Assembly: GCA_039801085.1 (NCBI GenBank)
Contig: JBDRTY010000001.1
Location: forward strand, 571,538 to 635,537
Source of the DNA: a candidate division WOR-3 bacterium
GTDB taxonomy: Bacteria > Hydrothermota > Tepidihabitantia > Tepidihabitantales > Tepidihabitantaceae
Reading direction: 5' to 3'
DNA: 64,000 nt
Within the stretch, counting starts at the first letter, position 1. Each line of letters starts with the position of its first letter. The position numbers and the translations under genes were made by a program. Shown in pieces: positions 18,846-58,993 of this stretch. The notes under the pieces were generated by a model. The model worked only from the letters and a program-made list of their open reading frames with translations. It had not been told where the DNA came from and made no database searches.

Positions 18846-18878
18846 CAGGATATGCCGGCTTTCGGTGTCTAAACTGTG

Positions 18879-22990: not shown

Positions 22991-25900
22991 ATGGGATTGC
23001 GGGTTTTCCTGCTGTTATTATTTTCTGTCGGGCTCGTCTTCGGCAGAGTGGAAATAATTCGTTCGGACAGCAGAGGGGTGGTGGTCAGTTATTATCCCGG
23101 AAAGATGAAGGTTACATCAATCGGCGGGAGGACGCAGATTGAATTTGAGGATGCGGAACCGGTTGCAGTATTTGGAGAGTATGATCTGCCGGCACGGGTT
23201 ATCCGGCTGGGTATTGCTCAGCAGGGTCATGTGCGGTTGAATTTCCGGGTGCACGAGGGAGGGACGATTCCGGATGCTGAGCCGCCAACAGTAGATTTCA
23301 TTCCCTTTGAGACAGACAGGCAACCGGAGCCAGAGGACCGGCTGCGGTCTGGTATCTTCCCCGCCAGCCCGGTTGCGATTGATTCGCCCCAGTTCCTGCG
23401 TTCGGTCCGGTTTGTTACATTGCGGTTCAATCCGGTTCAGTATGACGCCCGGCGCCGGAAACTGGTCTGGTTTGACCGGATTGAAGCGGAGCTGGAGTTT
23501 GAGCAGCCCGCAGTTAACAATCCCCGGTCCGAGCCGCTCGATGAGGCAATAGAGCAACTGCTGGCAAACGGCGAGGTGGCGAAAAACTGGAAGATTGATT
23601 TCGATTCACAGGGGCAGAACCCCTTTGACCACTTTCCTTTCTGGCTCAAGGTGGTGGTCGATTCCACCGGTATTTACCGGATCACCGGCCAGGAACTGGC
23701 ACAAGCCGGAGTTGGGTTAAGCGGACTTGACCCCAGAACTATCGGATTGTGGACCGTGCGCCGTAATTTCCAGACCGGGAATTATCCTGATACCTTCAAT
23801 CCGGTCGCGCTGATGATTACCGGTACTGAGGACGGCCGGTTTGATTCCAATGACACCCTGATTTTCTATGCGCTTGGTTCCGACTACTGGATGAGTGACT
23901 GTTCCACCCCTGTCCACAATCTTTATACCGGCGAAAATGTATACTGGCTTACCTGGGGTGCAGGTTCAGGCCGGCGCATTCCCGGCGGTTTCGGACCTGA
24001 TACCGCGGGTACCACGGTCCGCTGGCAGGAACGGGATGTACTGCATCAGGAGGTTGATGCAGACTGCCCGGCGCGTGCCGGGCTTTTGTGGATCTGGGCG
24101 ACACTGAACAAACCGGCAGACCGGACCAGCACATCGTTTACCTGCAGGCTGGACCTGAAATATCCGGTTCAGATTGAACGCATCCGGGGCAGGCTGTATA
24201 ACGAGACCGCCCAGAACGACATTGAGGTGCTGTTCAACAACCGTTCTGTTTTGAGGTTTCAGTTTGCTCAGTCGCCCTATCCGGCGCCGTATGATTTTGT
24301 CGTTGACTCTTTACTGCCCGCTGACTTCCGGACGAACATTCTGGAACTGCGCCTGAGCGGAAATGGCGAAAAGAAGGTGCACCTTGATTATCTACAGGTC
24401 AGATACCGGCGCCGGCTCTCGCTGGCAACCGGACCGCTCAGCTTTTACGTTGATGATACCGGCAGATTCCGGTTCCGGATCATTGATGTCCCGGCGCGAC
24501 CGCTGATTCTGGATGTTACTGACCCGGACAATCCGCGGGCGATTCTCGATTTTGAGTTTCATGGTGACACCGCTCAATTCTGCTATCAGATTCGGAAAAC
24601 AACCCTTTTCGCCATTGCCGCACCGCAGCAGCTGCGCCGGGTTAAACGGCTCGAGTTGAAGCGGCCCGGCAGGCTCTGGGCAGGACCGCCGGCCGATTAT
24701 TACATTATCACCCCGCGGGAGTTTCTGCCCGCTGCGAGCGAGCTCGCCCGTTACCGGAATGGCAGGATACCGGGAGTCAGCAATGGACGGGCTGAGGTGG
24801 TGGTGCTCGAGGATATCTATGATGACTTCAATTTCGGACTCAGTGAACCCCGGGCGGTCAAGCGGTTTCTGCAGGAGAAGCGTCCCGGATATGTGCTGCT
24901 GGTCGGCGATGCCACCTATGATTACCGGAACAATCTGAGAAGGACACAGACGCCGGGTGTGCCCGCTTATGAAATTGGCGAGGGGTTCAATCCTGAATCC
25001 GGAGACCGCCGGACACTGGCGCTTGATGCCTGGTATGCGGACCTGGAGGGTGAAGGTGCAAGTCCGGATCTGATTTTAGGCCGGGTGTGTGTCCGCTCCG
25101 GATACGAGCTGCGGGAATATGTCCGGAAGGTGATTGAGTATGAGAATCAGCCCGCCGGCTACTGGCACAGGCGTTTTCTCCTGCTGGCAGACGATGAATA
25201 CCAGCGCTATCCGGACCGGCCGGACGAACTTCGCTTTCGACACATCGAACAGTGTGAGGGAATAGGGGTGATGGCTGGAGAGCGGTTTGATCTCGTAAAG
25301 GTTTATCTTACTGAATTCCCTTTTCTCGGTCCCAAAAGCAAGCCGGGTGCCAATCAGGAGCTGATGCGGCAGTTGAATCTCGGAGCACTCGTCTGGTTTT
25401 TCTTCGGTCACGGCTCGGCATTTGCCCTGACCCACGAGGAGGTCCTGACTGTGACCCGGCTTTCGGACATCAGCAACGGCAACCGGGTGCCGTTCTGCTT
25501 CATGGGCAGCTGTTCAGTGGGCAGGTTTGATGACACCCGGCAGGAGTGCATTGCTGAGGAGCTGGTGCGGATGTCCGGCGGTGCGATTGCCTGTGTTGCC
25601 GCTTCAACCGCCACACCTTCCGGAAATAACCTGGTCTTTGCCCGCAATCTGCTGGCACCACTGCTCAGTGCGGGCGATACCGCACGCAGTATCGGATTCT
25701 GCTTCTTTCAAGCCTGGCCTACAGACCGGAGCTACCATCTCTTCGGTGATCCGGCAGTCAGACTGCAGATTCCGCGCCTTAATCCGGAACCGCCGGTGCT
25801 CAAACCTGAGACGCTGGCAACCGGCAGCAGGTTCCGGGTGCGCTCACTGCTGGCAGTGGAGAAGGCAAACACCGAATGGCGACTGTTCGGTCCGGTCCTG

Positions 25901-26824
25901 AACCGGACCTACAATTCGCCGCTGGGCATAAGTGCCACTTATCCTCTGCCCGGTGCGGAGCTGGCACGGGGCAATTTCCGGTTGAAGGACGGCAGATTTT
26001 ACTGCGAAGGTATTTTCCCGCGGGGAATTGTCGCAGACACGATATTTACCGGTAACGGATATTATGCACCACTGTCCGGTTCCTGCCGGTTCAGTGCGGT
26101 CCTTGCTACCGATTCCGGTCCGCTGGGTGTTTTAAGGGACAGAATTGAGTTTACAACCGCCCTGACCCCGGCGTCAGACAGCACCGGGCCAAGCGTTGTA
26201 TTCCGTTACCAGGGCAGGATGCTGAGAGATGATGATTTAGTGCCGGCAGATGCACTGCTGGAGATTGTGCTTGAGGACCCTTCCGGGATTCTGCTTGCAC
26301 CGATTCCCGGTATGGAACCGGTGCTGATGGTTAATGATTACCGGAATACAATACCGCTTGCGGACCGACTGATCTTTGACGACAGCTCCTATTCCCGCTG
26401 CCGTTGCCGGGTGCAGTTGCACCTTGAGGGTCCGCAGGATTCTATTTTTGTTTCAGCTGCGGACAACCTCCTGAACTCCAGCCGGATCGGGTTGCGGCTC
26501 AGACCGGTGGTCTCCGGTGTGCTGAAACTGGATTCGGTCCTGGTCTATCCCAATCCGGTCCGGCGCACCGCATTCTTCACCTTTACCCTCAGCCAGCCGG
26601 CAGCGGTGCGGGTCCGGATCTGGACACTCAGTGGCAGACTGGTCCGCGACCTCGGGATTCTGCCGTGCGGGTTCGGCTACAATCAGATTTTCTGGGATGG
26701 GAATGATGGGCAGGGGGTGCCGGTTGCAAACGGTATCTATCTTTTTACCGTGACTGCCGAATTCCGGAACGGAACCGATGTGCAGCGGGTTGCGGTCCGG
26801 GATAAACTGCTGGTGCAGCGGTAA
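22991..26824 (+). CDS. porU: PorU-like C25 peptidase (type IX secretion sortase)
   Basis: This 1277-residue protein has a signal peptide (residues 1-18) and a long beta-rich N-terminal part. A gingipain-type peptidase domain (about 565-930) follows, with His807 in FFGHGSAF and Cys841 in MGSCSVGRF. The motif EDIYDDFNFGLSEPRAVKRF is characteristic of PorU. The C-terminus has an FlgD/T9SS-type Ig domain (VYPNP, then W-D-G-N-D-x-x-G and NGIYLFTV). PorU normally cleaves the sorting domain of T9SS cargo and attaches it to the surface. A PorV-family barrel follows directly, as in known porU-porV pairs. A secreted gingipain is the alternative, but domain order favours PorU. Confidence 0.82.
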   Translation: MGLRVFLLLLFSVGLVFGRVEIIRSDSRGVVVSYYPGKMKVTSIGGRTQIEFEDAEPVAVFGEYDLPARVIRLGIAQQGHVRLNFRVHEGGTIPDAEPPTVDFIPFETDRQPEPEDRLRSGIFPASPVAIDSPQFLRSVRFVTLRFNPVQYDARRRKLVWFDRIEAELEFEQPAVNNPRSEPLDEAIEQLLANGEVAKNWKIDFDSQGQNPFDHFPFWLKVVVDSTGIYRITGQELAQAGVGLSGLDPRTIGLWTVRRNFQTGNYPDTFNPVALMITGTEDGRFDSNDTLIFYALGSDYWMSDCSTPVHNLYTGENVYWLTWGAGSGRRIPGGFGPDTAGTTVRWQERDVLHQEVDADCPARAGLLWIWATLNKPADRTSTSFTCRLDLKYPVQIERIRGRLYNETAQNDIEVLFNNRSVLRFQFAQSPYPAPYDFVVDSLLPADFRTNILELRLSGNGEKKVHLDYLQVRYRRRLSLATGPLSFYVDDTGRFRFRIIDVPARPLILDVTDPDNPRAILDFEFHGDTAQFCYQIRKTTLFAIAAPQQLRRVKRLELKRPGRLWAGPPADYYIITPREFLPAASELARYRNGRIPGVSNGRAEVVVLEDIYDDFNFGLSEPRAVKRFLQEKRPGYVLLVGDATYDYRNNLRRTQTPGVPAYEIGEGFNPESGDRRTLALDAWYADLEGEGASPDLILGRVCVRSGYELREYVRKVIEYENQPAGYWHRRFLLLADDEYQRYPDRPDELRFRHIEQCEGIGVMAGERFDLVKVYLTEFPFLGPKSKPGANQELMRQLNLGALVWFFFGHGSAFALTHEEVLTVTRLSDISNGNRVPFCFMGSCSVGRFDDTRQECIAEELVRMSGGAIACVAASTATPSGNNLVFARNLLAPLLSAGDTARSIGFCFFQAWPTDRSYHLFGDPAVRLQIPRLNPEPPVLKPETLATGSRFRVRSLLAVEKANTEWRLFGPVLNRTYNSPLGISATYPLPGAELARGNFRLKDGRFYCEGIFPRGIVADTIFTGNGYYAPLSGSCRFSAVLATDSGPLGVLRDRIEFTTALTPASDSTGPSVVFRYQGRMLRDDDLVPADALLEIVLEDPSGILLAPIPGMEPVLMVNDYRNTIPLADRLIFDDSSYSRCRCRVQLHLEGPQDSIFVSAADNLLNSSRIGLRLRPVVSGVLKLDSVLVYPNPVRRTAFFTFTLSQPAAVRVRIWTLSGRLVRDLGILPCGFGYNQIFWDGNDGQGVPVANGIYLFTVTAEFRNGTDVQRVAVRDKLLVQR

Positions 26825-26844
26825 CACCGGTGTCAGGGGTATGC

Positions 26845-26872
26845 TTGACCTGAGCTAACGGTTGCTTAATAT
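26845..26872 (+). promoter_or_regulatory. promoter of porV and downstream operon
   Basis: TTGACC (26845-26850), 16 nt, TAATAT (26867-26872), 32 nt before the porV start, which has AAAGGAGG. The genes from porV to korC (28020-33224) run closely spaced on the same strand and may share it. Confidence 0.6.
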
Positions 26873-26904
26873 TATATATCAGGATAAGTAAAGGAGGTCC
26901 GATA

Positions 26905-28020
26905 ATGAAGCGCAGAGTCTACTGGCTGCTGGTGCCGGTTGTCTTCAGTCTGGTATCAGCGAGCCAGAATCCGGGCGCGGTCTTTCTCATCATCTGGCCC
27001 GCTGCCCGTCCGACATCTCTTGCCGGTGCATTCACCGCCATCAGCGATGACGCCTCCGGTCTTTATTACAACCCCGGCGGGATGGCATTTCTCAACGGCA
27101 CTAATGCCACCCTGATGCACTGCAACTGGCTGCCCGGCCTCTGGCCCGGAATGTACTATGAGTATGCCGGAGTGGCACACAACTTTCCGGGTAAGGGTAC
27201 TGCGGGCTTCAATTTCATCTATCTCACCACCGGCGAGACCGATGTGATCAACGAGCGGGGTGAGTTTCTGGGCAGGTATACGACTTTTGACCTTGCGCCG
27301 ACACTCGGTTACGCCTTCCCGGTACTGCCCAATCTGGGCGTGGGCATCTCTGCCAAACTGATTTATTCCTTTCTGGTGCCGGACTGGGTATGGAAGGTGA
27401 TGCCGGAACTGGGGATTGAGGCAGGAGGTACCGGGATCAGCTGGGCATTTGATGCCGGGGTGCTTTACAAACCGGTTCATTTTCTCAATGTCGGAGCGTC
27501 TTTCGCAAACCTCGGACCCAACATCTCCTACACCTCCTCCGGCGAATCGGATCCGCTGCCCCGGATGCTGCGGGTCGGACTGGCTTATTATCCGCTCAAG
27601 CGGGATATGTTTTCGGTGGCAATCACCCCGGAAATCACGAAACTCATGGTGGGAATCTTCTCCGACTCCACCAAGAGCTTCGGTCAGCAGTTTGCAGCTG
27701 AATGGCGCGACGCCTGGAAGAGTCTGGGGCTGGAAGCCGGGGTGAATCTGGATGTGGTTGCCGCCTTTCTCCGGCTCGGCTATTTCGAAGATGTTACCGC
27801 CCAGCGCGGCGGACTGGTTTTTGAAAAGGATGGCCAGACCTATCACTACAGCGTCCAGGACCTCCTGACCCGGCGCGGGCTCGGCTCATTCAAATCACTC
27901 GGCTGGACCTTTGGTGCCGGCATCCGGTTTCAGCGCTTCCAGTTTGACATCGGGGTTGATCAGTTCATCTACGACTTCTCCACCTCCAACTACAAGTTTT
28001 CATTCTCCTACCAGTTTTAG
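26905..28020 (+). CDS. porV: PorV/PorQ-family outer-membrane protein
   Basis: This 371-residue barrel has a signal peptide and the family start R-P-T-S-L-A-G-A-F-T-A-I-S-D-D-A-S-G-L-Y-Y-N-P-G-G-M-A. A FadL-like barrel with strands such as FNFIYLTTGETDVI and a terminal F-S-F-S-Y-Q-F follow. In T9SS, PorV binds cargo sorting domains at the translocon and carries them to PorU. Position immediately after the PorU-like gene supports this role. A general PorV/UPF0164 barrel of other function cannot be excluded. Confidence 0.8.
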   Translation: MKRRVYWLLVPVVFSLVSASQNPGAVFLIIWPAARPTSLAGAFTAISDDASGLYYNPGGMAFLNGTNATLMHCNWLPGLWPGMYYEYAGVAHNFPGKGTAGFNFIYLTTGETDVINERGEFLGRYTTFDLAPTLGYAFPVLPNLGVGISAKLIYSFLVPDWVWKVMPELGIEAGGTGISWAFDAGVLYKPVHFLNVGASFANLGPNISYTSSGESDPLPRMLRVGLAYYPLKRDMFSVAITPEITKLMVGIFSDSTKSFGQQFAAEWRDAWKSLGLEAGVNLDVVAAFLRLGYFEDVTAQRGGLVFEKDGQTYHYSVQDLLTRRGLGSFKSLGWTFGAGIRFQRFQFDIGVDQFIYDFSTSNYKFSFSYQF

Positions 28021-34953: not shown

Positions 34954-34984
34954 TTTATCCTCCTGTGGATTATATTTTACCTTA

Positions 34985-35012
34985 ATCATAAAACTGAGAT
35001 TTTATATGTCAA
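34985..35012 (-). promoter_or_regulatory. promoter of the DUF262 gene
   Basis: On the minus strand, TTGACA (35007-35012), 16 nt, TATGAT (34985-34990), about 32 nt upstream of the start codon. Confidence 0.65.
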
Positions 35013-35263: not shown

Positions 35264-38218
35264 CTAACGGATAAGCACTGCCCGTTCGGTTAAGTTCATT
35301 CCCGGTGTCTTCAGCCGGATGAAGTAGACACCCGGTGTCAGCCCTTTTGCGGACCAGTGGTATTCACTGTTGCCCGGCAGGACTGTGCCCTGATGAATTT
35401 CGGCAATGGTTCTGCCCGCAATGTCGTGGAGGGTGAGCCGGACCGGTGCAGGAGCGGGCAGGTTGAGCCGGACGGTGAGGTTGCGGGTGAAGGGGTTGGG
35501 CGAGATGGTGAGCGCGGAGTTGAGCGGTGCGGTTCGGTCCTGGGGTTCTGCTGTGCCGATGTAGTGGCGATACCAGCGCTGGGCGCTGTCCGCATTGACC
35601 AAAGCAGATGCGATTGTATTACCGCCGACAAAGGCGACCGCAAACCGGATTGCGGAGAAGGGGTTGATGGTGAACGGTCCGGCAGAGGCGCAGAGCGCCC
35701 AGTTGTCAGGCCGGGTGGAGCGGGGGAGGCTGATCTGACCGCTCAGGAAGCGCCATTTCTGGGCATCGCGGAATGCGGAGTCGGGTTCGTAGTAGACCGC
35801 CGGGTCAATTGCGGTCAGGTGGATGCCGGAGTCGGGTTCCAGAATCTTGATTCCGGCAACCGGTGCGCTGTCACGGGCGCTTGTGATGTAGATGAAGCGG
35901 CGCAGGCTGTCCTGGTCGCAGATGTCGCCCGCGGTGTCAACCGTGAAGTCGGCGAAGATCCCGGGGTAGAAGCTGGAGACGGTGGTGGAGCCGTTGTTCT
36001 GAACTGTGTAGACGATGACAACAAAGTCGCGGTAGCCGGGCGTGCCGTCCGCATAGCTGTTCTGGCTGGCAACGAGCAGTTTGGAGCGGGGATGGTTGCG
36101 GTCCGAGAACCAGGCGCGGTAGTGCTCATGTCCTTTCTGGGGCGGGTAGATGTTGCGCAGGCTGTCCACAAGGAGAAATTCGGTGTCCGGCGGTGCGGTT
36201 ACCGGTCTGGTGTAGTAGCGGTCAACAACATAGAGGGTGTCAGTGCCCCAGGCAAGTGAGGCGTGGCGCAGGATTGAAGGGGCGGTCTTGGGATAGCAGA
36301 AGCCGGAGCCGGCACTTTCCGGTGCCAGATAGCCGAGCGCACCGAGGCAGGAGACGCTCAGCCGGCAGTTGTTGGTGTCGTGGTCAAAGATTATCTGTCC
36401 GGGCATGCCGACCCGGAGTTCAATGCCGAATCTGGTGGCATAATCTGCACTTTCGCCGGTAACATAAAGGGTGCAGGGGAGAAGCATGCCGGCGCGCAGG
36501 CTGGTGTCCGCAGTCAAAAAGAAGCGGTCAGCAAGGTTGTAGGCGCTGTCCTGAGGCGGGATTGTGCCCCAGGAGCCGGTGGAGTCGGTGACCTGAAGCC
36601 GGTAGTCAAAGGAGCGGAGAATGCCGCGGGTGTTGGCACAGAAGGCGTTGCCGTCGTTTCTGAGCCAGAAGCGCAGGCTGGCGCTCTCGCCCGGGTCAAT
36701 ATAGCCGTCGGTGTTCCCCGAAGAGTCGGCAAGGACAAACCGGAGCATCTTCAGATAAGGTCCTCTCGGCACCGCATTAACCGCAGCAAAGGCATCAATT
36801 CTGCCCGCACCGAAGTCATTGTCCTTGCCGCCAGGTCCGAGGTCGACCGCGGTCACCTCAAGGATTGAGTCCACCATTCTCGGAGTGAGGTTCGGGTTCT
36901 TCTGCAGCATCAGGCAGACCGTGCCCGCAGTGTGCGGAGTCGCCATCGAGGTGCCGTCCATGCTCTGATAACCGCCACCGATCCGGCAGGAGATGACCGC
37001 CACCCCGGGCGCACTCACATCCGGCTTGGTCAGTCCGGGCGGATAGGGGTAGTCGTTATAAGGAGCAACATTCTGCCAGGTGACCGGTCCGGGGCTGGAG
37101 AAGTAGGCGATCGCATCGGTTGAGTCGGTCGCACCGATCGAGATCACACCGGATAGGGCACCGGTGCCGGTGTTCTGCGGGTTCCACCAGGGCGGCGGCA
37201 CATTGCCCGGACAGCGGAGCGCACTCGGCGGAGTTGCCTGTCCCCGCTCATTGCCGGCAGCGATGATCTGGATCACACCCGCCGCATTGACATTGTCCGC
37301 CACCTGCCGCCAGGTCGCCTGGTGCGGGTTCCAGGAAAGCATCCAGCCCAAGGACATCGTGTAGAGGTCCGCACCATTTGCCGGTGAGAGCGGGGGCGAG
37401 ACCACAAACTGCATCGCCTGCCAGCACTGGCTCTCCGCCACCGAGTCCGCTACCGTCCGCACCCGGCAGACCATGATCCGGGCATCCGGCGCCACCCCGC
37501 ACTGGGTGCCCGAGGTGCCATCACTGGCAACCGTGCCTGCCGTATGGGTGCCATGCCCCTGCTGGTCCATCGGGTTGTTGCTGTTGTCCTCAAAGTTCCA
37601 GCCGTGATAGGGGTAGTTGGGGTCCTCCCACATGTGGTCTGCCAGGTCGGGATGGGTGTAGTCACAGCCGGTATCAATGTGCCCGCAGACCACACCCTGG
37701 CCGGTGTAGCCCTGTGCCCAGACCTCAGGCGCCCTTATCTTGCGCACACCCCAGGTCGCATCATACTGCGGCTCTGCCGGCGCACCCGGCTTCTCGAGCA
37801 GGTCCGGACACCAGGCAAGATCATAGTTGACATAGTGGACATCTGCCCGCTGCGAAAGCTCCCGGATCACCGCCGGTGTCGCCTCGCAGGCAACCGCATT
37901 GACAATCCAGATCGAGCGGATGTCCCGGACCAGGCCCTGTTGCTCCTTCTCCTCGAGATAGCTCAGGATGGAGGACTGCTCCCTCCGGGCAAACTCGCCG
38001 AGAATCTCTGCCACCCGCACCCGGCGCTCCCGCCGGCTCAGACCGTCAACCTGCGAGAAAAGCAGCCGGGTGTCATACTGGTTTTTCAGAACGATGTGGA
38101 CCGGCAGCTTCTGGTCAGCCGCCGCGGTGCTCAGATGCCGCTCCAGCTCCGGACTGATCATTCCGAAGCCGAAGGCAAAGAGCAGGATTGCGATACCCAA
38201 ACACAGCCTTAATTTCAA
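35264..38218 (-). CDS. secreted S8 subtilisin-like peptidase with T9SS sorting domain
   Basis: This 984-residue protein has a signal peptide, a propeptide-like region (about 20-150) and a subtilase domain with Asp182 (HIDTG), His222 (GHGTHTAG) and Ser424 (DGTSMATPH). A region of about 400 residues (488-888) follows that is also found in the C25 peptidase at 41778-45356. The end is a T9SS type A sorting domain (ISPNPF, then TPGVYFIRL). A TTG start is used, supported by AAGGAGG at the right distance and by the signal peptide. It is probably a surface or extracellular protease exported by the type IX system. Confidence 0.93.
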   Translation of the reverse strand: MKLRLCLGIAILLFAFGFGMISPELERHLSTAAADQKLPVHIVLKNQYDTRLLFSQVDGLSRRERRVRVAEILGEFARREQSSILSYLEEKEQQGLVRDIRSIWIVNAVACEATPAVIRELSQRADVHYVNYDLAWCPDLLEKPGAPAEPQYDATWGVRKIRAPEVWAQGYTGQGVVCGHIDTGCDYTHPDLADHMWEDPNYPYHGWNFEDNSNNPMDQQGHGTHTAGTVASDGTSGTQCGVAPDARIMVCRVRTVADSVAESQCWQAMQFVVSPPLSPANGADLYTMSLGWMLSWNPHQATWRQVADNVNAAGVIQIIAAGNERGQATPPSALRCPGNVPPPWWNPQNTGTGALSGVISIGATDSTDAIAYFSSPGPVTWQNVAPYNDYPYPPGLTKPDVSAPGVAVISCRIGGGYQSMDGTSMATPHTAGTVCLMLQKNPNLTPRMVDSILEVTAVDLGPGGKDNDFGAGRIDAFAAVNAVPRGPYLKMLRFVLADSSGNTDGYIDPGESASLRFWLRNDGNAFCANTRGILRSFDYRLQVTDSTGSWGTIPPQDSAYNLADRFFLTADTSLRAGMLLPCTLYVTGESADYATRFGIELRVGMPGQIIFDHDTNNCRLSVSCLGALGYLAPESAGSGFCYPKTAPSILRHASLAWGTDTLYVVDRYYTRPVTAPPDTEFLLVDSLRNIYPPQKGHEHYRAWFSDRNHPRSKLLVASQNSYADGTPGYRDFVVIVYTVQNNGSTTVSSFYPGIFADFTVDTAGDICDQDSLRRFIYITSARDSAPVAGIKILEPDSGIHLTAIDPAVYYEPDSAFRDAQKWRFLSGQISLPRSTRPDNWALCASAGPFTINPFSAIRFAVAFVGGNTIASALVNADSAQRWYRHYIGTAEPQDRTAPLNSALTISPNPFTRNLTVRLNLPAPAPVRLTLHDIAGRTIAEIHQGTVLPGNSEYHWSAKGLTPGVYFIRLKTPGMNLTERAVLIR

Positions 38219-41777: not shown

Positions 41778-44700
41778 GTGTTAAAAAGAACAGTTTTGAT
41801 TGTAGCGGCAGTCGCCGGTCTGCTTGGCGCCGAGTGGCTGGGGACCGGAACAGTCGCAACTCCGCCGGAAATCACCATCGTGGAGCAGAATGTCAGCCGC
41901 ACCGTGTTTGAGGTCCGGGTGCCGGGTGTTGAGCTGGACCGGACCACAGTTGACGGTGAGGAGTTTACGGTTGTCAATCTGCCCGGTGAGGTGATGGCGG
42001 TCCTGGAGGAGGGCAGACCGCAGGTGCCGAAGGTTTCGGTTCTGCTCGGGATTCCGAGCGGGGCAAAGGTCAGTTACCGGATTCTGAACCGGGAAACCCG
42101 GACCTATCAGGTGGGCAGGGTCTACCCGCTGCAACCGCCGCTGATTGACGGTCAGGAGCCCGGTCCGTTTGTCATTGACCGGACATTCTATCAGCAGAAC
42201 CGGTTCTATCCGGATGCTGATATCGCATTGCTCAACACCGGGGTCTGGCGTGACCTTTCAGTCGCAAATCTGCAGGTCTATCCGGTGAAGGTTAACCCTG
42301 CAACCGGTGAGCTGGAGCTGACCACCGCAATCCGGGTGCAGGTTGACTATTATGGCGGAAGCTATCCGCGGTTTGTTGCGGACTGGATGGTGCCCCATTA
42401 TGCCGGTTATGTTGACAACTTCCGGTATCTGCCGGTTCAGCCGCTGACCGACTACAACCCGGGTGTGCGTTATCTGGTATTCTGCCATCAGCGGTATGAT
42501 ACCTGTACTTATCTGAATGACTCACTGCTGGGCTGGGTCAGACAGCGGGGTTATGAGGTGCGGAAGATCACCAAAGCCAGTTTTACCGCTCAGGAGATCA
42601 AGGACTCAATCCGGGCAGAATACAACCGGAACAACCCGAAGACCCTGCGCTGGGTTCTGCTCGTGGGTGAATATGGTGAAATTCCGATGGGCTCCTATTC
42701 CGGTGTAGGCAGAAGCGATTTCTGGTACACTGATCTTGAACCCTGGCCCGGTGGTGACAACTATCCGGAGGTCGGGCTGGGCAGACTTTCGCCGGCATCG
42801 GTGACTGACCTGAACAATCAGATTGCCAAGATTCTGAAATATGAGAAAAACCCGCCGAGCACCAATAACTGGCTGGACAAGCTGATTATGCCCGCTCATT
42901 CCGAGCAGTATCCAGGCAAGTACTCGGGTTGTGTGCGCGGGATTTACTTCATGCCTAAGCCCTACTGGAACCCGAGCGTGGTGGAGACGATCATGGGTCA
43001 GTTTACCGGTAACACCACGGTAACCAATGCGCTGAATCAGGGCAGAGGGATTGTCGCCTATCGGGGACATGGTGACTATACCGAATGGTGGCAGTGGGGA
43101 ACCGAAGGCTCCTGGTATAACTCCCATATCTATGCGCTGAATAATGGTGATATGACACCGGTGGTTTACAATGTCGCCTGCAATAACGGGGACATCTATC
43201 AGAGCGAGTGTCTGGCAGAAGCCTGGATGCGCAAGTATCCGGGCGGTGCAGCCGGAACATTCGGTGCCACTCAGGCATCCTATACATATCCGAATCACGG
43301 CATCTGCTCAACGCTGGTCCGGGCAACCTGTGATACCTGGACAATCACCGTGCCTGGAGTGCGCAATTACGGTCCGACCCCATATAATCTTGCAGATATC
43401 AAGTGCTATGGGGTTGATGCCTATGTGGCAAAATACTGGCCCGGAAGTCCGTATCCTGATAACATCTACATGTATCTGGTGCTCGGGGATCCGTCAATGC
43501 CGGTCTGGACCGGTATGCCTGCCACACCAACAGTGCAGTTGCCCGATTCGATTCCACTCGGTCCCTACAATCTGAATGTGACCGTGCGGGTGGGCACGCG
43601 GCCGGTTGAAGGGGCGCTGGTGTGTGCCTGGAAGGAGCCGGATGTGTATGTGGCAGAGCGGACCGATGCGAGCGGTGTGGCGACACTGGCGGTCAATGCC
43701 GGAACTCCGGGAACAATGCGGATTACCGTTTCTGAAGGGCACTGCGAGCATTCAGTATCCGGGGTTCAGCATACGCCGATTCTGCCCTATACCACGACCA
43801 GACCGGTTGGCGGTGGTGGTGCGCCCCAGCCCAATATGGTCTATGTGTTCAATATGGTAGTTGATTCACCTCCGGGCGGAAATAACAACGGCAGGTTTGA
43901 TCCGGGCGAAACCGGGAAAATCATCGTTACCCTGCGCAATACCGGCAATGCAACCGCCGAGAATGTGACCGCCCGACTGAAGTCCACCCATCCGCAGTTT
44001 GTGATTACCGATTCCACGAGCAGTTACGGCAACATTCCGCAGGATTCACTGCGCAATAACCGGTCTGATCCTTTTGTGGCACAGGCAGGTTCAGGAATTA
44101 CGCCCGGGACCTATGTGGTCTGTTCGCTGAAGGTGCGCTCGGATAACTATCAGCATGAGTGGAACTATGCTTTCAGCCTGCAGGTCGGACAGCCGCCAAT
44201 GCCCGGTCAGTTTGTGATTGACCTGGACACCGGTTCGGTCCTGCTTTCGGTCTGTGCGATCGGTTCAATCGGCTATGACGAACCGCCGGCACAGGATCTG
44301 GGACAGGGGTTCCGGGTGCCGAAGACCGCAGCCTCCTGTCTCTTTTACGGTGCAATCATGGCGGGTAATTCGCCGACCTACCTCGTGGACCACTTCTATT
44401 CCCAGCCGGCTAATTCCGGGACCAATCACGACTGGCAGACACCGGACAGCTTCCGGCTGGTAACACCGCCGGCACCGGCAGATGAGCACTGGATGAATAC
44501 CATGACCGATGGCGGCCACTCAACGCCGAAGGGTCTGCGGGTCAGTCAGCAGTGGTACATGAACAGCGATCCCGGTTATGACAACTGGGCGGTGCTGACC
44601 CTGGAGTTCACCAATAACGGCTCCCAGCCGATTAACGGACTGTATGCCGGTATTGTGGGCGATTTTGATATCGGTTCTTCATCGACCACCAATATCGTTG

Positions 44701-45356
44701 TTTCCGACACGGTGCGCCGGGCGGTACTGATGCGGCAGTCCTCAAGCGAGAATCCGAGCGCCGGTTTTGTGCTGCTGGAACCGGAGCGGTATGCGAACAT
44801 CGGCGCGCTGGATCATGCGATCTATGTTTATCCTGACTCCTGTGTTACCGATGGCCAGAAGTTCAGAATGCTTAACGGCACGATTGTTCAGCGGAATTCA
44901 AACCGGGCTTATGACTGGTCGGTGTTTGTCTCTGCCGGACCGAACGATCTGCCGGTGGGCGGTGTCTGGCGGGTTGCAATCGGTGTAATCGGTGCGACGA
45001 GCGTGAACGGGTTCTGGAGTTCGGTGGATACCTGTCAGCGCTGGTATGTCGCCAATCTCCTGGGCATTCAGGAGAAACCGGTGAATGTCATGGCAACGCC
45101 GGACCGACCACTCGTCATCAGTCCGAATCCCTTCCGGAACCGGACCGCAATTCATTACTTTGCCGCTCAGCGCGGAAATCTTGATCTGACCGTAATTGAC
45201 GCAACCGGCAGAGTGGTGAGTCAGGAACGGTTTGAGGTTGCTGCCGGAACCGGCACGGTAATCTGGAAGCCGAAGGCGCTGGCAGCAGGCATTTACTTCC
45301 TGAAGGTTCAGGGAGCGGGCGCCAGCACCAGTGCCAAGTTCCTGATTATGGAATAA
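41778..45356 (+). CDS. secreted gingipain-type (C25) cysteine peptidase with T9SS sorting domain
   Basis: This 1192-residue protein has a signal peptide, a propeptide-like region and a C25 catalytic domain (about 230-580) with His431 in YRGHGDY and Cys468 in YNVACNNG. An Ig-like domain (about 585-660) and a region of about 400 residues (688-1096) follow; the latter is shared with the S8 peptidase at 35264-38218. It ends in a T9SS type A sorting domain (ISPNPF ... AAGIYFLKV). The start is GTG at 41778 after AAAGGAGG. It lacks PorU-specific motifs and is probably cargo of the system rather than its sortase. Confidence 0.92.
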   Translation: MLKRTVLIVAAVAGLLGAEWLGTGTVATPPEITIVEQNVSRTVFEVRVPGVELDRTTVDGEEFTVVNLPGEVMAVLEEGRPQVPKVSVLLGIPSGAKVSYRILNRETRTYQVGRVYPLQPPLIDGQEPGPFVIDRTFYQQNRFYPDADIALLNTGVWRDLSVANLQVYPVKVNPATGELELTTAIRVQVDYYGGSYPRFVADWMVPHYAGYVDNFRYLPVQPLTDYNPGVRYLVFCHQRYDTCTYLNDSLLGWVRQRGYEVRKITKASFTAQEIKDSIRAEYNRNNPKTLRWVLLVGEYGEIPMGSYSGVGRSDFWYTDLEPWPGGDNYPEVGLGRLSPASVTDLNNQIAKILKYEKNPPSTNNWLDKLIMPAHSEQYPGKYSGCVRGIYFMPKPYWNPSVVETIMGQFTGNTTVTNALNQGRGIVAYRGHGDYTEWWQWGTEGSWYNSHIYALNNGDMTPVVYNVACNNGDIYQSECLAEAWMRKYPGGAAGTFGATQASYTYPNHGICSTLVRATCDTWTITVPGVRNYGPTPYNLADIKCYGVDAYVAKYWPGSPYPDNIYMYLVLGDPSMPVWTGMPATPTVQLPDSIPLGPYNLNVTVRVGTRPVEGALVCAWKEPDVYVAERTDASGVATLAVNAGTPGTMRITVSEGHCEHSVSGVQHTPILPYTTTRPVGGGGAPQPNMVYVFNMVVDSPPGGNNNGRFDPGETGKIIVTLRNTGNATAENVTARLKSTHPQFVITDSTSSYGNIPQDSLRNNRSDPFVAQAGSGITPGTYVVCSLKVRSDNYQHEWNYAFSLQVGQPPMPGQFVIDLDTGSVLLSVCAIGSIGYDEPPAQDLGQGFRVPKTAASCLFYGAIMAGNSPTYLVDHFYSQPANSGTNHDWQTPDSFRLVTPPAPADEHWMNTMTDGGHSTPKGLRVSQQWYMNSDPGYDNWAVLTLEFTNNGSQPINGLYAGIVGDFDIGSSSTTNIVVSDTVRRAVLMRQSSSENPSAGFVLLEPERYANIGALDHAIYVYPDSCVTDGQKFRMLNGTIVQRNSNRAYDWSVFVSAGPNDLPVGGVWRVAIGVIGATSVNGFWSSVDTCQRWYVANLLGIQEKPVNVMATPDRPLVISPNPFRNRTAIHYFAAQRGNLDLTVIDATGRVVSQERFEVAAGTGTVIWKPKALAAGIYFLKVQGAGASTSAKFLIME

Positions 45357-46386: not shown

Positions 46387-46665
46387 ATGAAGCTCTGGCG
46401 TAAACCACTGGATGCAGAAGAGAAAAAACCGCCGCGGGGCGAGGTGCATATTCTGATTGAGCGGTGCAAGGGCTGCGGGTTCTGTATCACCTTCTGTCCG
46501 AAACAGGTGCTGGAATCATCAACCGATTTTAACCGCAAGGGGTATCATCCTCCAATCGTCAAATATCCGGAGCGGTGCGTGAACTGCGGGTTGTGCACCA
46601 TTATCTGCGGTGAGTTTGCCATCTGGACGACACCAGTTGAGGAGCCGGGTGATGGGAGAAAATAG
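46387..46665 (+). CDS. korD: 2-oxoacid:ferredoxin oxidoreductase, delta (ferredoxin) subunit, cluster 2
   Basis: This 92-residue protein has two [4Fe-4S] motifs, CKGCGFCITFCP and CVNCGLCTIICG; the second lacks the usual Pro after the last Cys. It is the first gene of the seven-gene redox operon and a paralogue of the ferredoxin subunit at 30504. Confidence 0.92.
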   Translation: MKLWRKPLDAEEKKPPRGEVHILIERCKGCGFCITFCPKQVLESSTDFNRKGYHPPIVKYPERCVNCGLCTIICGEFAIWTTPVEEPGDGRK

Positions 46666-48678: not shown

Positions 48679-49213
48679 GCTTTCCGGTTTCGGCGGTCAG
48701 GGAATCATCATGATGGGGATGATCCTGGGCAAGGCGGCAACCCTTTATGATAACAAGTATGCGACCCTGACTCAGAGTTTCGGACCGGAGGCACGGGGTG
48801 GTGCCTGCTCCGCCCAGTTGATCATCTCCGAGACCAAGATTCTCTATCCCTATCTGACCGCACCCGACATTCTGGTGGCGATGTCCCAGGAGGCTTACGA
48901 GAAGTTTGAGCCGACGCTCAAGGACGGCGGGATTCTGATTCTGGAACAGAATCTGGTCAAGCCGCACAATCATGAGGGCCGGGTGCGGGAGTTTGCCATT
49001 CCGGCAACCCGGATTGCAGAAAGTCTGGGTAACCGGATGTTCGCCAATATGGTGATGCTGGGCTTTGTCTGTGCAGTGACCGGAGTTGTGCCGAAGGAGG
49101 CGCTGGTCAAGGCGGTCAAGGACACCCTGCCGGCACGGGTGCTGGAAAAGAACCTGACTGCGCTGGAGCAGGGTTATCAGCAGGGGATGGCACAGCTTGA
49201 GCAACAGCAGTGA
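48665..49213 (+). CDS. korC: 2-oxoacid:ferredoxin oxidoreductase, gamma subunit, cluster 2
   Basis: This 182-residue subunit has LSGFGGQGIIMMGMILGKAA and FGPEARGGACSAQLIISE. The start overlaps korB by 14 nt and the end overlaps the next flavoprotein gene by 17 nt, so the KOR and the flavoprotein are tightly coupled. Confidence 0.93.
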   Translation: MQEIKLSGFGGQGIIMMGMILGKAATLYDNKYATLTQSFGPEARGGACSAQLIISETKILYPYLTAPDILVAMSQEAYEKFEPTLKDGGILILEQNLVKPHNHEGRVREFAIPATRIAESLGNRMFANMVMLGFVCAVTGVVPKEALVKAVKDTLPARVLEKNLTALEQGYQQGMAQLEQQQ

Positions 49214-52536: not shown

Positions 52537-52548
52537 AATAGAAAGGAG

Positions 52549-55497: not shown

Positions 55498-55950
55498 ATG
55501 GTTCTGTGCAGGTTTGGCTTGATAGTGTGTATGCTGGTTCTGGCAGGGTGTGGCAGTAAAGATAGAGAAAGAAAAGGGACGCAGGTCAGTTCCGGCGCTT
55601 ACAGTCATACCGAGTTGAGTGATGACCTGAGTGCCCTGCCGGCGCAGTTCCGGTATCCGAATGTTGTGGTGCTGGACTGCGGTGAGGACAGCAGTGAGTC
55701 CGGAGTTAAGCGGGACTTTGTGCTCAGAAGCAGTGATTCCTTTCCGCAGGTGGTGAATTTCTACAAGCAGGCGTTTGACGGGCTGATGAATTACGGGATC
55801 GGCGCAGCATATTCAGACCGGACCGCACGGTTTACCGCCGAAAGCGACGCCGGCAATGAGAAGCTGATGTGCTTTCTGGTGCGGGAGGGGACGGGGACAC
55901 TGATCATCTTCATTCACGAACTGGATTTCCGCCAGCGGACAGAGGTATAG
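55498..55950 (+). CDS. small putative lipoprotein, function unknown
   Basis: This 150-residue protein has a lipoprotein signal (LIVCMLVLAGCGSKD). The mature part has a predicted strand (PNVVVLDCGED), then a helix rich in aromatic residues (FPQVVNFYKQAFDGL) and two late strands ending TLIIFIHELDF. I do not recognise a family. The ATG at 55498 is supported by AAAGGAGG and by the lipobox. It is followed after 8 nt by the first of two BNR-repeat secreted proteins and may be co-transcribed with them. Confidence 0.75.
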   Translation: MVLCRFGLIVCMLVLAGCGSKDRERKGTQVSSGAYSHTELSDDLSALPAQFRYPNVVVLDCGEDSSESGVKRDFVLRSSDSFPQVVNFYKQAFDGLMNYGIGAAYSDRTARFTAESDAGNEKLMCFLVREGTGTLIIFIHELDFRQRTEV

Positions 55951-55958
55951 TGGCGGAA

Positions 55959-57470
55959 ATGAACTGGATAATGAAATTTTTTCTGCTGTTTTTAAGTGCG
56001 GTTACCGGTGCTTCTGCCGGGTTCATTCCGTCGATCCGGGTTGACCATGAGTCCCGGGTTTCCCGGATGTGTTATAATTCTGCAATCGTGCTCGGTCCGG
56101 AGGATAGTTTCAGTCAGTCGGTTTATGTGGTGTTTGAGAATGATTCATTTGCCGGGAGTATAATTGTCCAGCAGGATATCTATTTTCAGCGGTCAACCGA
56201 TGGGGGATTGACCTGGCTGAGTGAGGACCGGCTGGTGCGGCGTGGGGCACCGTTTGCCTGTTATCCGGATATTGCGGTTGACCGTTCAGGTTGTATTTAC
56301 ATCGTTTATACAGAAAGGACGGATAATACCGCCCATATCTGCTGTATCCGCTCAACTGATATGGGTGAGAGCTGGTCTGAGCCGGTGCGGGTTGATGATA
56401 ATGGTGCCGGCGTGATGGCGGGCTGGGCAAGAGTTGCGGTGGACACCGGCGGAAACCTCTTCTGCGCCTGGAACGACCGGCGGCTGGGCAGGATGACAAT
56501 ATGGTCTGCTGTTTCAACTGACGGGGGCAGGAGCTGGTCAGCAGATGTGCGGGTGGATGATGATACGGTGCCGGGTGACTGTTTTCATACCGATGTGTTT
56601 GTTCAGCCGGGAACAAATCATTATCTCGTAACCGCAACTACGCCCTTCTGGGTACGGCCGGGCTATATCAATTCCAATGCCTCGTTTTTCCGTTCAACTG
56701 ATCAGGGGAGGACATTTGAGCCTGGAGTGGTGATTGATACCTTTTCTGACTACTGCGGTCAACCCCATGTGGTAGCAGATGCCGGACATATAATCTGTGA
56801 CTGGACCGGTTCTGGCGCCGGGATGGAGAACAGCCGGACCGAGGCGCGGGTGCTCTTTACCCCTGGTGACAGCTGGAGCATGCCGGTTGCAGTCAGTGAA
56901 CTGGATACCCTTTATACCTCCTATTACAACGGCGGAAAACTGGCGATTGACCCCAATGGCAATGTTCATTGTGTGCTGATGCTCGCTGAGGTGACTAATT
57001 ACAATTATGATATTTTTTACGCATTCAGCGATTGCCACGGACTTGTCTGGCAGGAACGGGAGCCGGTAAATGATGTCAAGGATGAAAATCAATGGGACCC
57101 GGATATTGCGGTTGACCGGAACGGCATAGCATATGTAGTCTGGCAGGACTGGAAAAATGGTCGGGGGGAAATCTGGTTTTCCACCAATCGGCAGACCGGG
57201 GTTGCAGAAAACCGGGCAGAAGACCGGCCGTTGGTGAGTATCACGCCCAATCCCTTCCGGGAACGGGTGGTGATTTTTGTCAATGGCACTCCGGCACAAA
57301 AGCCGGTTCTGGAAATTTTTGATCGGACCGGCAGGCGCATAAGGACACTGAGTATTACCGCTAATCAGGCGGTCTGGGACGGAATGGATGAATACGGTGT
57401 TCGGGTTGAAGCCGGAGCCTATTTCCTCTGTTATGGCGGTCATAAGAGCAGACTGGTGCTTGTGAGGTGA
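55959..57470 (+). CDS. secreted BNR/Asp-box repeat protein with T9SS sorting domain (copy 1)
   Basis: This 503-residue protein has a signal peptide (MKFFLLFLSAVTGASA after four residues). At least four Asp-box repeats (STDGGLTW, STDMGESW, STDGGRSW, STDQGRTF) indicate a six-bladed sialidase-type propeller. The C-terminal T9SS domain is SITPNPF...VWDGMDEYGVRVEAGAYF. Sialidase catalytic Arg residues cannot be assigned with confidence, so enzymatic activity is open; it may only bind glycans. Starts at 55959 (or the ATG at 55971). It is paralogous to the next gene, which overlaps it by 4 nt. Confidence 0.85.
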   Translation: MNWIMKFFLLFLSAVTGASAGFIPSIRVDHESRVSRMCYNSAIVLGPEDSFSQSVYVVFENDSFAGSIIVQQDIYFQRSTDGGLTWLSEDRLVRRGAPFACYPDIAVDRSGCIYIVYTERTDNTAHICCIRSTDMGESWSEPVRVDDNGAGVMAGWARVAVDTGGNLFCAWNDRRLGRMTIWSAVSTDGGRSWSADVRVDDDTVPGDCFHTDVFVQPGTNHYLVTATTPFWVRPGYINSNASFFRSTDQGRTFEPGVVIDTFSDYCGQPHVVADAGHIICDWTGSGAGMENSRTEARVLFTPGDSWSMPVAVSELDTLYTSYYNGGKLAIDPNGNVHCVLMLAEVTNYNYDIFYAFSDCHGLVWQEREPVNDVKDENQWDPDIAVDRNGIAYVVWQDWKNGRGEIWFSTNRQTGVAENRAEDRPLVSITPNPFRERVVIFVNGTPAQKPVLEIFDRTGRRIRTLSITANQAVWDGMDEYGVRVEAGAYFLCYGGHKSRLVLVR

Positions 57471-58993
57471 GGCCGATGCTGATAAATCATAATCGAATCT
57501 GGGGGGTGTTGGGTCTGATAATAGTCTCAGGAGTCAGTTTTGCCGAGTTCCTGCCGGCAGTCAGGGTTGATCAGGAGAATCGTCCGAATTATGCCTGTTA
57601 TCATGCGGATGTTGCCGTGGGTCCGGTGATTGCCGGGACACCGGTGATCTATGTCGCATTTGAGGATGATTCGGTGCCCTTTACAGTTCAGCGGAGCGAT
57701 ATTGCGTTTCAGCGGTCAACCGATGGCGGCAGAACCTGGCTCAGTGAGAATATCATCATCCGGCGCGGTAACCGTTTTGCCTGTTATCCGGAGTTGGTGG
57801 TTGGCAGGGATGGAACAATCTATCTGATGTATATTGACCGGATTGACGGTTCAAGGGGGCATATTCATTTTGTCCGCTCCACTGATATGGGCGAAACCTG
57901 GTCAGACCCGGTACAGGTGGATGATAATACCGGCACAGTGCCGATCGGCTGGGTGAAACTGGCGCTGGACAGTTCTGAAAATATCTTCTGTTCCTGGACT
58001 GACCAGCGGAGCGCATATCTGCGGGTTTATGCTGATGTGTCAACCGATGGTGGCAGAACCTGGGGGCGTGATGTGCGGGTGGATGATGATACGGTTTCAT
58101 TTAACTGTTATCCCCCGGATGTTTTTGTTCAGCCGGGCACAAATGACTATTTAGTAGTGGCTGATGCACCGGTGCGGGAAGGAAGCGGGATTGTGCTTCA
58201 TTCCCATTTTTACCGTTCCACCGACCAGGGCAGGAGTTTCAGCCCGGGTTTTCAGCTGGATACCTTTTCGGGCTATTCACGAATGCCCCATGTGGTGGCG
58301 GATGAGCAGCATATAATTACCGATTATACCGGTAATGGCTATGTGAATCAGTGCAAGACACTGGCACGGACCTGGTATGCGGATGGTGACACCTGGGGCG
58401 AGCAGGTGCTGGTGACCGAACTGGATACGATTTACAGTTCATTTACTCAGGGGGCAAAACTGGCGATTGATCCGATTAGTGTTGTCCATACCGCATTGAT
58501 GTTTGCCCACCGGGAAAGCACCATCTGGAACATTTATTATACTTACTCCACGGACCACGGCAGAACATGGGCACAGAGGGAGGCGGTGAGTCCAATGGCG
58601 ATGGTTCAGCAGTGGGACCCAAGCATTGCTGTTGATCAGGACGGGACGGTTTGTATTGTGTGGCAGGATATGCGCGAAGGCAAGGCAGAAATCTGGTTTT
58701 CTACCAACCGCCTGACCTCAGTGACCGAATCGGACGCAAGTGCACCCGGATTAAAAATTGAGTGTATGCCCACAGTTTTTCGTTCAAGAAGTTACTTTAA
58801 CATATCAGGTAAACTGGATGAAAATGCTATAGTTAAAATATATGACCTTTCAGGAAAGACTGTAAGAAGTTTGAGGATTTGTGAAGGCAGGGGATTCTGG
58901 GATGGGTGTGATGATGCCGGGAAAAGGTTGAATCCCGGTGTTTATATTGTGCGACTGGGTAATGTCACCAGTCGGGTAACCCTGCTGCCTTAA
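57467..58993 (+). CDS. secreted BNR/Asp-box repeat protein with degenerate sorting domain (copy 2)
   Basis: This 508-residue protein is a tandem paralogue of the preceding protein. It shares the Asp boxes (STDGGRTW, STDMGETW, STDQGRSF, STDHGRTW) and segments such as V-D-D-D-T-V and W-D-P-S-I-A-V-D. The C-terminal domain keeps F-W-D-G-C-D-D-A-G-K and P-G-V-Y-I-V-R-L, but the usual PNPF has become MPTVF. Start GTG at 57467 overlaps the upstream stop; the ATG at 57476 is an alternative. The last part of the gene (after about 58770) is more AT-rich than the rest. Confidence 0.83.
   Translation: MRPMLINHNRIWGVLGLIIVSGVSFAEFLPAVRVDQENRPNYACYHADVAVGPVIAGTPVIYVAFEDDSVPFTVQRSDIAFQRSTDGGRTWLSENIIIRRGNRFACYPELVVGRDGTIYLMYIDRIDGSRGHIHFVRSTDMGETWSDPVQVDDNTGTVPIGWVKLALDSSENIFCSWTDQRSAYLRVYADVSTDGGRTWGRDVRVDDDTVSFNCYPPDVFVQPGTNDYLVVADAPVREGSGIVLHSHFYRSTDQGRSFSPGFQLDTFSGYSRMPHVVADEQHIITDYTGNGYVNQCKTLARTWYADGDTWGEQVLVTELDTIYSSFTQGAKLAIDPISVVHTALMFAHRESTIWNIYYTYSTDHGRTWAQREAVSPMAMVQQWDPSIAVDQDGTVCIVWQDMREGKAEIWFSTNRLTSVTESDASAPGLKIECMPTVFRSRSYFNISGKLDENAIVKIYDLSGKTVRSLRICEGRGFWDGCDDAGKRLNPGVYIVRLGNVTSRVTLLP

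What the first reader, a model, noticed from the sequence alone, without database searches (positions are those of the whole stretch)
22991..28020. porU-porV pair and several type IX cargo proteins in a probable non-Bacteroidota genome
Seen: a PorU-like C25 peptidase is followed at once by a PorV-family barrel. Four other window proteins carry T9SS-type C-terminal domains (subtilase, gingipain, two BNR proteins), and a PorV-like barrel lies at 3827-4957. Known: PorU and PorV form the attachment complex of the type IX system. The accompanying gene content suggests a lineage outside Bacteroidota, where the system is little studied.
Basis: partly seen in the sequence, partly recalled or inferred. 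Interest (0 to 1): 0.55.

Follow-up and report, generated by a model that had tools for sequence, protein, structure and literature searches.

The report
Type IX secretion without its motor
This uncultured bacterium has the outer-membrane gate, carrier and sortase of the type IX protein export system but no recognisable copy of the motor that powers that system elsewhere, so its export is either powered in another way or by a motor too changed to recognise.

Summary
The porU-porV pair is real. Window 22991-26824 is a full-length PorU-like sortase (404.7 bits, cut-off 420; catalytic His807 and Cys841 kept); 26905-28020 is a PorV/PorQ-family barrel. Five window proteins, PorU included, end in T9SS-type domains. 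The barrel at 3827-4957 is BamG-like, not PorV-like. The genome is WOR-3.

Sov/SprA is present here (1,873 aa, 498 bits) and in 143 of 147 WOR-3 genomes. GldM/PorM is found in 0 of 147, GldL/PorL over cut-off in 0 of 147, GldN/PorN over cut-off in 0 of 41. The GldM and GldL models work in two outgroup controls. Outside the phylum Sov and PorU co-occur (48 of 55 strong Sov genomes have PorU), yet GldM is missing from 62 of 63 Sov genomes tested.

Best reading: a type IX gate-carrier-sortase module without the Bacteroidota energy chain. A conserved ExbB-ExbD-ExbD-TonB operon is a candidate motor, but its marker is in only 79 of 147 genomes. Sov outside Bacteroidota is already in print.

The parts
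22991..26824 (+). porU-like gene: C25 sortase/peptidase, 1,277 aa
   Evidence: PF01364 214.3 bits; NF033707 404.7 bits, cut-off 420; aligned to 6za2
25409..25411 (+). codon of catalytic His807 (FFGHGS)
   Evidence: in register with 6za2; His in 23 of 23 PorU sequences aligned
25511..25513 (+). codon of catalytic Cys841 (GSCS)
   Evidence: in register with 6za2; Cys in 23 of 23 PorU sequences aligned
26543..26758 (+). C-terminal T9SS/FlgD_ig-type domain of PorU (residues 1185-1256)
   Evidence: own profile 78.4 bits (this sequence was one of the three seeds); TIGR04183 24.0 bits, cut-off 23
26905..28020 (+). porV-like gene: PorV/PorQ-family outer-membrane barrel, 371 aa
   Evidence: NF033709 157 bits, cut-off 90 met; PorV and PorQ equivalog cut-offs not met
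35264..38218 (-). subtilase cargo, 984 aa, C-terminal domain at residues 904-972 (35303-35509)
   Evidence: PF00082 167.3 bits; TIGR04183 29.8 bits; own profile 80.9 bits (seed)
41778..45356 (+). gingipain-type C25 cargo, 1,192 aa, C-terminal domain at residues 1114-1179 (45117-45314)
   Evidence: PF01364 155 bits; TIGR04183 39.4 bits; own profile 74.4 bits (seed); fold model
55869..57470 (+). BNR-repeat cargo, 533 aa, C-terminal domain at residues 458-520 (57240-57428)
   Evidence: own profile 61.3 bits; PF13860 27.7 bits, cut-off 27
57467..58993 (+). BNR-repeat cargo, 508 aa, overlapping the previous gene by 4 bp; C-terminal domain at residues 433-499 (58763-58963)
   Evidence: own profile 60.6 bits; PF13860 20.0 bits, below cut-off 27

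Best explanation
The pair encodes the sortase (PorU) and carrier (PorV) of a type IX outer-membrane export and attachment module in a WOR-3 bacterium. Shown here: PorU-like sortase, PorV-family barrel, a Sov/SprA translocon gene elsewhere in the genome, and cargo with type-IX-like C-terminal domains are present, and Sov and PorU are kept across the phylum. Inferred: cargo crosses the inner membrane by Sec and enters the Sov barrel; its C-terminal domain docks on PorV; the cargo-PorV complex leaves Sov sideways; PorU then cuts the domain and may attach the protein to the surface. The known energy chain for the release step (GldLM motor, GldKN ring) is not recognisable (GldL, GldM and GldN searched, GldK not). 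The replacement I think most likely, by inference only, is a proton-driven ExbB/ExbD/TonB-type motor. The best candidate is the operon at G000:C4 about 68-77 kb: a protein ending in a FlgD_ig domain, a PorV-like barrel with an Ig-like tail, a TPR protein, ExbB, two ExbDs, TonB and a FlgD_ig protein.
For: PorU architecture and catalytic residues. PorV family. Sov 497.8 bits against TIGR04189, cut-off 200, and SprA 6h3i E 2.8e-37. Sov in 143 of 147 WOR-3 genomes, PorU in 137 of 147. Sov-PorU co-occurrence in 243 genomes outside the phylum: both 48, Sov only 7, PorU only 22, neither 166, Fisher p=4.2e-26. porU-porV adjacency in 6 of 20 other loci. CTD fold: mirolase, NucA and PorU C-terminal domains rank first at Z 10.6, 10.3 and 10.0. 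No GldM in 0 of 147 and no GldL over cut-off in 0 of 147, with both models positive in G208 and G349. ExbD in 20 of 21 genomes; operon order kept in 10 of 15 relatives' loci. Precedent for Ton-type secretion: PopC in Myxococcus (PMC6434023, passages).
Against: No export, processing or energisation has been shown. PorU misses its formal cut-off by 15 bits and PorV meets only the broad family cut-off. CTD Z-scores stand less than 1 above unrelated Ig-like folds (9.9, 9.8) and Foldseek alone ranks such folds first. The operon's marker is at E<=1e-39 in only 79 of 147 WOR-3 genomes and missing from nearly complete Sov-bearing ones such as G019, G020, G025, G028 and G031; no motor gene sits beside sov. 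Weak GldL-model matches of 18.8-25.2 bits occur in 9 WOR-3 genomes. Broad searches scored only a few candidates per genome; G208 has GldL and GldM but no Sov or PorU match, so misses are possible.
Confidence: 0.65

Rival explanations
1. Hidden motor: a normal type IX system whose PorL/PorM (and PorK/PorN) have diverged beyond the family models.
For: The family models are built on Bacteroidota. Sov itself keeps only about 18% of the score that the control G349 reaches (498 of 2705 bits). Weak GldL matches in 9 WOR-3 genomes (18.8-25.2 bits). GldN had no positive control and GldK was not searched.
Against: A GldM as diverged as Sov should still score about 65-70 bits, by my scaling from the control scores of 362 and 394 bits; none reached E 0.01 in 147 genomes and G000 gave no first-look candidate. 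The ExbD-family hits in G000 lie in open frames of 142-158 aa, too short for a GldM with its long periplasmic part.
Confidence: 0.15
2. Motor-free release: the module needs no proton motor; PorU cutting the C-terminal domain, or folding of the cargo outside, pulls the cargo-PorV complex out of Sov.
For: In F. johnsoniae loading of the translocon needs no energy (PMC10994853, passages). PorU accompanies Sov in 48 of 55 strong Sov outgroup genomes. No ExbBD operon shared by every Sov-bearing genome was found.
Against: In F. johnsoniae substrates stay stuck on the translocon when gldL is deleted, and release is deduced to be the energy-requiring step (PMC10994853, passages). Ton-type ExbD genes exist in 20 of 21 WOR-3 genomes searched.
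Confidence: 0.2
3. Not a secretion system: the C25 protease, the barrel and Sov act separately, and the C-terminal Ig-like domains are ordinary FlgD-type domains.
For: The domains also match FlgD_ig and FlgD structures by sequence; the Ig-like fold is common.
Against: Sov, PorU and CTD proteins occur together in the genome; PorU keeps both catalytic residues in 23 of 23 sequences; porU-porV adjacency recurs; Sov and PorU co-occur outside the phylum.
Confidence: 0.07

Closest known systems
Type IX secretion system of Bacteroidota (P. gingivalis Por, F. johnsoniae Gld/Spr)
   Same: Sov/SprA translocon, PorV-family barrel next to a PorU-like sortase, cargo with C-terminal Ig-like domains
   Different: No GldL or GldM recognised in 147 WOR-3 genomes and no GldN in 41; Sov is shorter (1,873 aa against 2,403 for 6h3i)
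SprA outside Bacteroidota in the FCB superphylum (PMC12611786, passages; its table not seen)
   Same: Sov/SprA in phyla other than Bacteroidota; BamG-like protein also present
   Different: WOR-3 is not named in the main text (0 occurrences); motor, PorU and PorV are not discussed in the passages seen
Oar-dependent PopC secretion in Myxococcus xanthus (PMC6434023, passages)
   Same: ExbB, ExbD and TonB, with two ExbDs, used for a protein to leave through the outer membrane: a precedent for the candidate motor
   Different: The channel there is a TonB-dependent transporter, and that paper says the M. xanthus genome has no T9SS

Membership tests
Type IX secretion system | Sov/SprA translocon | tested here: met
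   497.8 bits, cut-off 200; 143 of 147 WOR-3 genomes at E<=1e-10
Type IX secretion system | PorL/GldL and PorM/GldM motor | tested here: not met
   GldM 0 of 147, GldL over cut-off 0 of 147; controls G208 and G349 positive
Type IX secretion system | PorK/PorN (GldK/GldN) ring | tested here: inconclusive
   GldN over cut-off 0 of 41, two matches of 12.6-12.8 bits, no positive control; GldK not searched
Type IX secretion system | PorW/SprE, PorT, PorG, PorZ | not tested
   The operon TPR protein matches PorW/SprE at 72 bits, cut-off 250, but YbgF (244) and BamD (199) higher, so this says little
Type IX secretion system | Cargo with conserved C-terminal domain | tested here: met
   TIGR04183 over cut-off in PorU, subtilase and gingipain; five window proteins by own profile; fold
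Type IX secretion system | CTD-dependent export and CTD removal | not testable with these tools
   needs experiment or proteomics
PorU sortase (NF033707) | Full-length match with the curated score of 420 bits | tested here: not met
   404.7 bits over 218-1260; hence PorU-like by the formal rule
PorU sortase (NF033707) | C25 catalytic His and Cys in the PorU fold context | tested here: met
   in register with 6za2; 23 of 23 sequences. That these are the catalytic residues of P. gingivalis PorU is recalled
PorV/PorQ family (NF033709) | Family cut-off of 90 bits | tested here: met
   157 bits over 25-371
PorV proper (NF033710) | Equivalog cut-off of 250 bits | tested here: not met
   77 bits; so a PorV/PorQ-family protein, PorV by position only
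BamG (NF053685), for the barrel at 3827-4957 | Equivalog cut-off of 250 bits | tested here: not met
   61.5 bits over 33-392 of 397 positions; called BamG-like only

The most novel reading that the evidence does not exclude
The Sov-PorV-PorU export module is separable from, and more widespread than, the GldKLMN energy chain. WOR-3 and many other lineages run it with another proton-driven motor of ExbB-ExbD-ExbD-TonB type, or with none, and the rotary motor and track were added in, or kept only by, Bacteroidota. [quoted passage not shown]
Probability: 0.4. Interest if true: 0.85.

Novelty: new variant of a known kind. Interest (0 to 1): 0.6.

Why it matters
In the papers seen, type IX export is a machine whose energy-requiring step, release of the cargo-carrier complex from the gate, is paid for by the GldLM proton motor (PMC10994853 and PMC12635249, passages). 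A phylum that keeps gate and sortase in nearly every genome but shows no recognisable motor makes two questions testable: what the motor is needed for, and whether gate or motor came first. A survey whose T9SS model includes GldK, L, M and N reports the system only in Bacteroidetes (PMC4793230, passages); that such models overlook motor-less modules is my inference.

Tried and rejected
The barrel at 3827-4957 as a second PorV: rejected, its only hit is BamG. The ExbBD operon as an obligate partner of Sov: not supported by its distribution. Motor genes next to sov: none seen; the neighbours, which I read by eye as folD, ispA, dxs and comEA, are kept in 5 of 7 relatives' sov loci (L025, L026, L028, L029, L030; not L027, whose contig starts at sov, nor L031). 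Structure of PorV: AlphaFold with two sequences failed (mean pLDDT 30.4) and was not used. Sequence search of solved structures with PorV, with the 3827 barrel and with the operon barrel alignment: no hits. Foldseek on the CTD model ranks unrelated Ig-like domains first, mirolase CTD 24th; only the VIA-align second look puts T9SS CTDs on top. Rfam and tRNA scans of the window: nothing. A shortened Sov N-terminus as a sign of a lost periplasmic dock: the alignment at about 20-23% identity is too loose to tell. Searches in print: 'WOR-3' with 'type IX secretion' gave 0 papers. No title, abstract start or passage I saw reports Sov and PorU without GldLM, but supplementary files were out of reach, the body of Extended Data Table 2 of PMC12611786 was not seen, and most subscription journals are not held.
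Full report
Observation. The pair stands at the stated coordinates. Window 22991-26824 (+) encodes 1,277 aa with a C25 peptidase domain, a C25 propeptide and a C-terminal FlgD-type Ig domain. It matches the PorU model over residues 218-1260 with 404.7 bits, 15 under the cut-off, and aligns to P. gingivalis PorU (6za2, E 2.2e-19) with the GHG and Cys motifs in register. His807 and Cys841 are kept in all 23 PorU sequences that I aligned: the window one, its paralogue, and 21 genes from 20 other loci. That these two positions are the catalytic pair of P. gingivalis PorU is recalled. Eighty bases on, 26905-28020 encodes a PorV/PorQ-family barrel (157 bits, cut-off 90). Five window proteins end in a T9SS-type domain: PorU, a subtilase, a gingipain-type C25 protein and two BNR proteins (the profile was seeded with the first three, so only the two BNR hits are independent of the seed). 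The barrel at 3827-4957 is not PorV-like; its only hit is BamG (61.5 bits, cut-off 250).

Where it is. The window lies in G000, a 1.91 Mb assembly, 96.8% complete. The one relative found among named genomes is candidate division WOR-3 bacterium SKW181 (PorU 92% identical in the best segment, same order of neighbours). Contig C8 of G001, a genome of the same genus, is exactly as long (542,397 bases) as the SKW181 contig, so I take G001 to be SKW181. G000 has 15 C25 peptidase genes. A second PorU-like gene on G000:C2 (L061 2955-6752) is 38% identical to the window one and scores 399 bits; by eye its neighbours are not PorV-like.

Sov is present. A single ORF of 1,873 aa at G000:C1 about 884-890 kb scores 497.8 bits against TIGR04189 (cut-off 200) and aligns in several stretches to F. 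johnsoniae SprA (6h3i, E 2.8e-37). At E<=1e-10 it is found in 143 of 147 WOR-3 genomes; the four without it are 53, 77, 77 and 87% complete. PorU at E<=1e-40 is found in 137 of 147.

The motor is not found. GldM: no match over cut-off in 41 relatives, one of 12.6 bits at E 0.05, and 0 of 147 in the phylum at E<=0.01. GldL: none over cut-off in 41, three genomes with matches of 12-13.5 bits. Over 390 genomes two are over cut-off, both outside the phylum, and nine WOR-3 genomes have matches of 18.8-25.2 bits, mostly within long open frames. GldN: none over cut-off in 41, two matches of 12.6-12.8 bits. rang nowhere, and the tool warned that this does not show absence. I therefore put GldM to the two GldL-positive outgroups, G208 and G349, where it scored 362 and 394 bits; the genes beside them I read by eye as gldK and gldN. 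One search was given 65 genomes: G000, G208 and 63 Sov-bearing outgroups including G349; that is 63 of the 82 Sov-bearing outgroups, those with the stronger matches. Only G208 and G349 rang. GldN had no positive control and GldK was not searched. A GldM as diverged as Sov (about 18% of the control's score, 498 of 2705 bits) should give some 65-70 bits; this scaling is my inference.

Co-occurrence outside WOR-3. Of 243 genomes outside the phylum, 82 have Sov at E<=1e-10, 55 of them at E<=1e-40, and 70 have PorU at E<=1e-40. With the stricter Sov set: both 48, Sov only 7, PorU only 22, neither 166, Fisher p=4.2e-26. With the looser set: 50, 32, 20, 141, p=8.6e-15. These counts ignore relatedness, and the broad searches scored only two candidates per genome. 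One result against: G208 has GldL and GldM but no Sov or PorU match, so either the search missed them or that genome lacks them; and G349, with Sov and motor, has no PorU match.

Linkage. Of 20 other PorU loci read, 6 have a PorV-family gene directly downstream on the same strand: L085 (SKW181), L086, L093 and L094 in WOR-3, L101 and L102 outside it. In P. gingivalis the two genes are also neighbours (recalled). sov lies among genes that I read by eye as housekeeping genes, kept in 5 of 7 relatives' loci, with no motor gene beside it.

Candidate replacement motor. ExbD genes were found in 20 of 21 genomes. G000 has three sets: one that looks Tol-Pal-like by eye (L045); an ExbB-ExbD-ExbD-TonB set near a gene that looks like a TonB-dependent receptor by eye (L044); and an operon (L046 6197-15043) of a 570-aa protein with a C-terminal FlgD_ig domain, a PorV-family barrel with an Ig-like tail (85.9 bits, cut-off 90), an 823-aa TPR protein, ExbB, two ExbDs, TonB and a FlgD_ig protein. 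Ten of 15 relatives' loci show this order, though in some an ExbD was not picked up; one is partial (L075) and four held other ExbD genes. The barrel's profile (A1) has matches at E<=1e-39 in 79 of 147 WOR-3 genomes (my hand count; order not checked there) and, over nearly full length, in four listed outgroups (G171, G210, G318, G354). It is missing at that level from nearly complete Sov-bearing genomes such as G019, G020, G025, G028 and G031. The operon is a candidate, not a demonstrated partner. A precedent: in Myxococcus an ExbB/ExbD/TonB system with two ExbDs is needed for protease PopC to leave through the outer membrane (PMC6434023, passages).

CTD fold. The gingipain CTD, with the four other window CTDs as its alignment (A3), gave a model of mean pLDDT 89.9 with seven strands. 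VIA-align ranks first the mirolase CTD (8qb1, Z 10.6, rmsd 2.1 over 77), the NucA substrate CTD in a type 9 complex (8glk_D, Z 10.3, 2.2 over 75) and the PorU CTD (6za2, Z 10.0, 2.7 over 85), with PorZ at rank 16 (5m11, Z 9.4); unrelated Ig-like domains follow from Z 9.9 down, so the margin is within a tie. Foldseek alone puts the mirolase CTD 24th.

Against what is known. In F. johnsoniae loading of the translocon needs no energy, and release of the cargo-carrier complex is deduced to be the energy-requiring step, powered through GldLM (PMC10994853, passages). PMC12635249 (passages) infers that the system first evolved as part of the gliding machinery of Bacteroidota. SprA outside Bacteroidota is in print: PMC12611786 calls it FCB-specific and lacking in Chlorobiota (passages). 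PMC11285876 names other FCB phyla in which T9SS may be present, WOR-3 not among them (passage). PMC4793230 reports T9SS only in Bacteroidetes, with a model that includes GldK, L, M and N (passages). I found no report of Sov and PorU without GldLM in the searches listed under Tried and rejected.

Verdict. It works, by inference from parts, like type IX export and surface attachment. By cut-off it belongs to the Sov/SprA family and the PorV/PorQ family; the sortase is PorU-like, just under the formal cut-off but with full-length match and catalytic residues. It is not filed as a complete type IX system, because the motor was tested and not found. I call it a new variant of a known kind.

Noticed in passing
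window 3827-4957 (-): Barrel protein that matches BamG (61.5 bits, cut-off 250), an essential partner of BamA in Bacteroidota; PMC12611786 (passages) reports BamG in most FCB phyla, so WOR-3 may have a Bacteroidota-like BAM complex.
   Followed up: partly
window 18876-21722 (+): 948-aa protein joining a Peptidase_MA_2 domain, a TolB/PD40-type propeller and a C-terminal Omp85 barrel domain, just upstream of porU's neighbour; an ORF of the same length lies at the matching place in L017.
   Followed up: no
L044 2754-5927 (+), G000:C1 about 759-762 kb: 1,057-aa protein with a short SprA-like stretch (TIGR04189 23.8 bits, positions 597-651) near an ExbB-ExbD-ExbD-TonB set; similar short matches appear in many relatives.
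   Followed up: no
G000:C2, L061 2955-6752 (-): Second PorU-like gene, 399 bits, 38% identical to the window one, both catalytic residues kept.
   Followed up: partly
L053 (G208): Outgroup genome with GldL and GldM but no Sov or PorU match in the broad searches: a search miss or a real loss.
   Followed up: no
window 46610-55137 (+): Run of 2-oxoacid:ferredoxin oxidoreductase subunits, an FeS-flavoprotein, a CCG/FlpD protein and an HdrA-like protein.
   Followed up: no
window 33361-34989 (-): Protein with a GmrSD restriction endonuclease N-terminal domain (85.6 bits) upstream of the subtilase in window order.
   Followed up: no
G000, whole genome: 15 C25 peptidase genes in 1.9 Mb; most of those whose C-terminus was read carry the T9SS-type domain.
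   Followed up: partly
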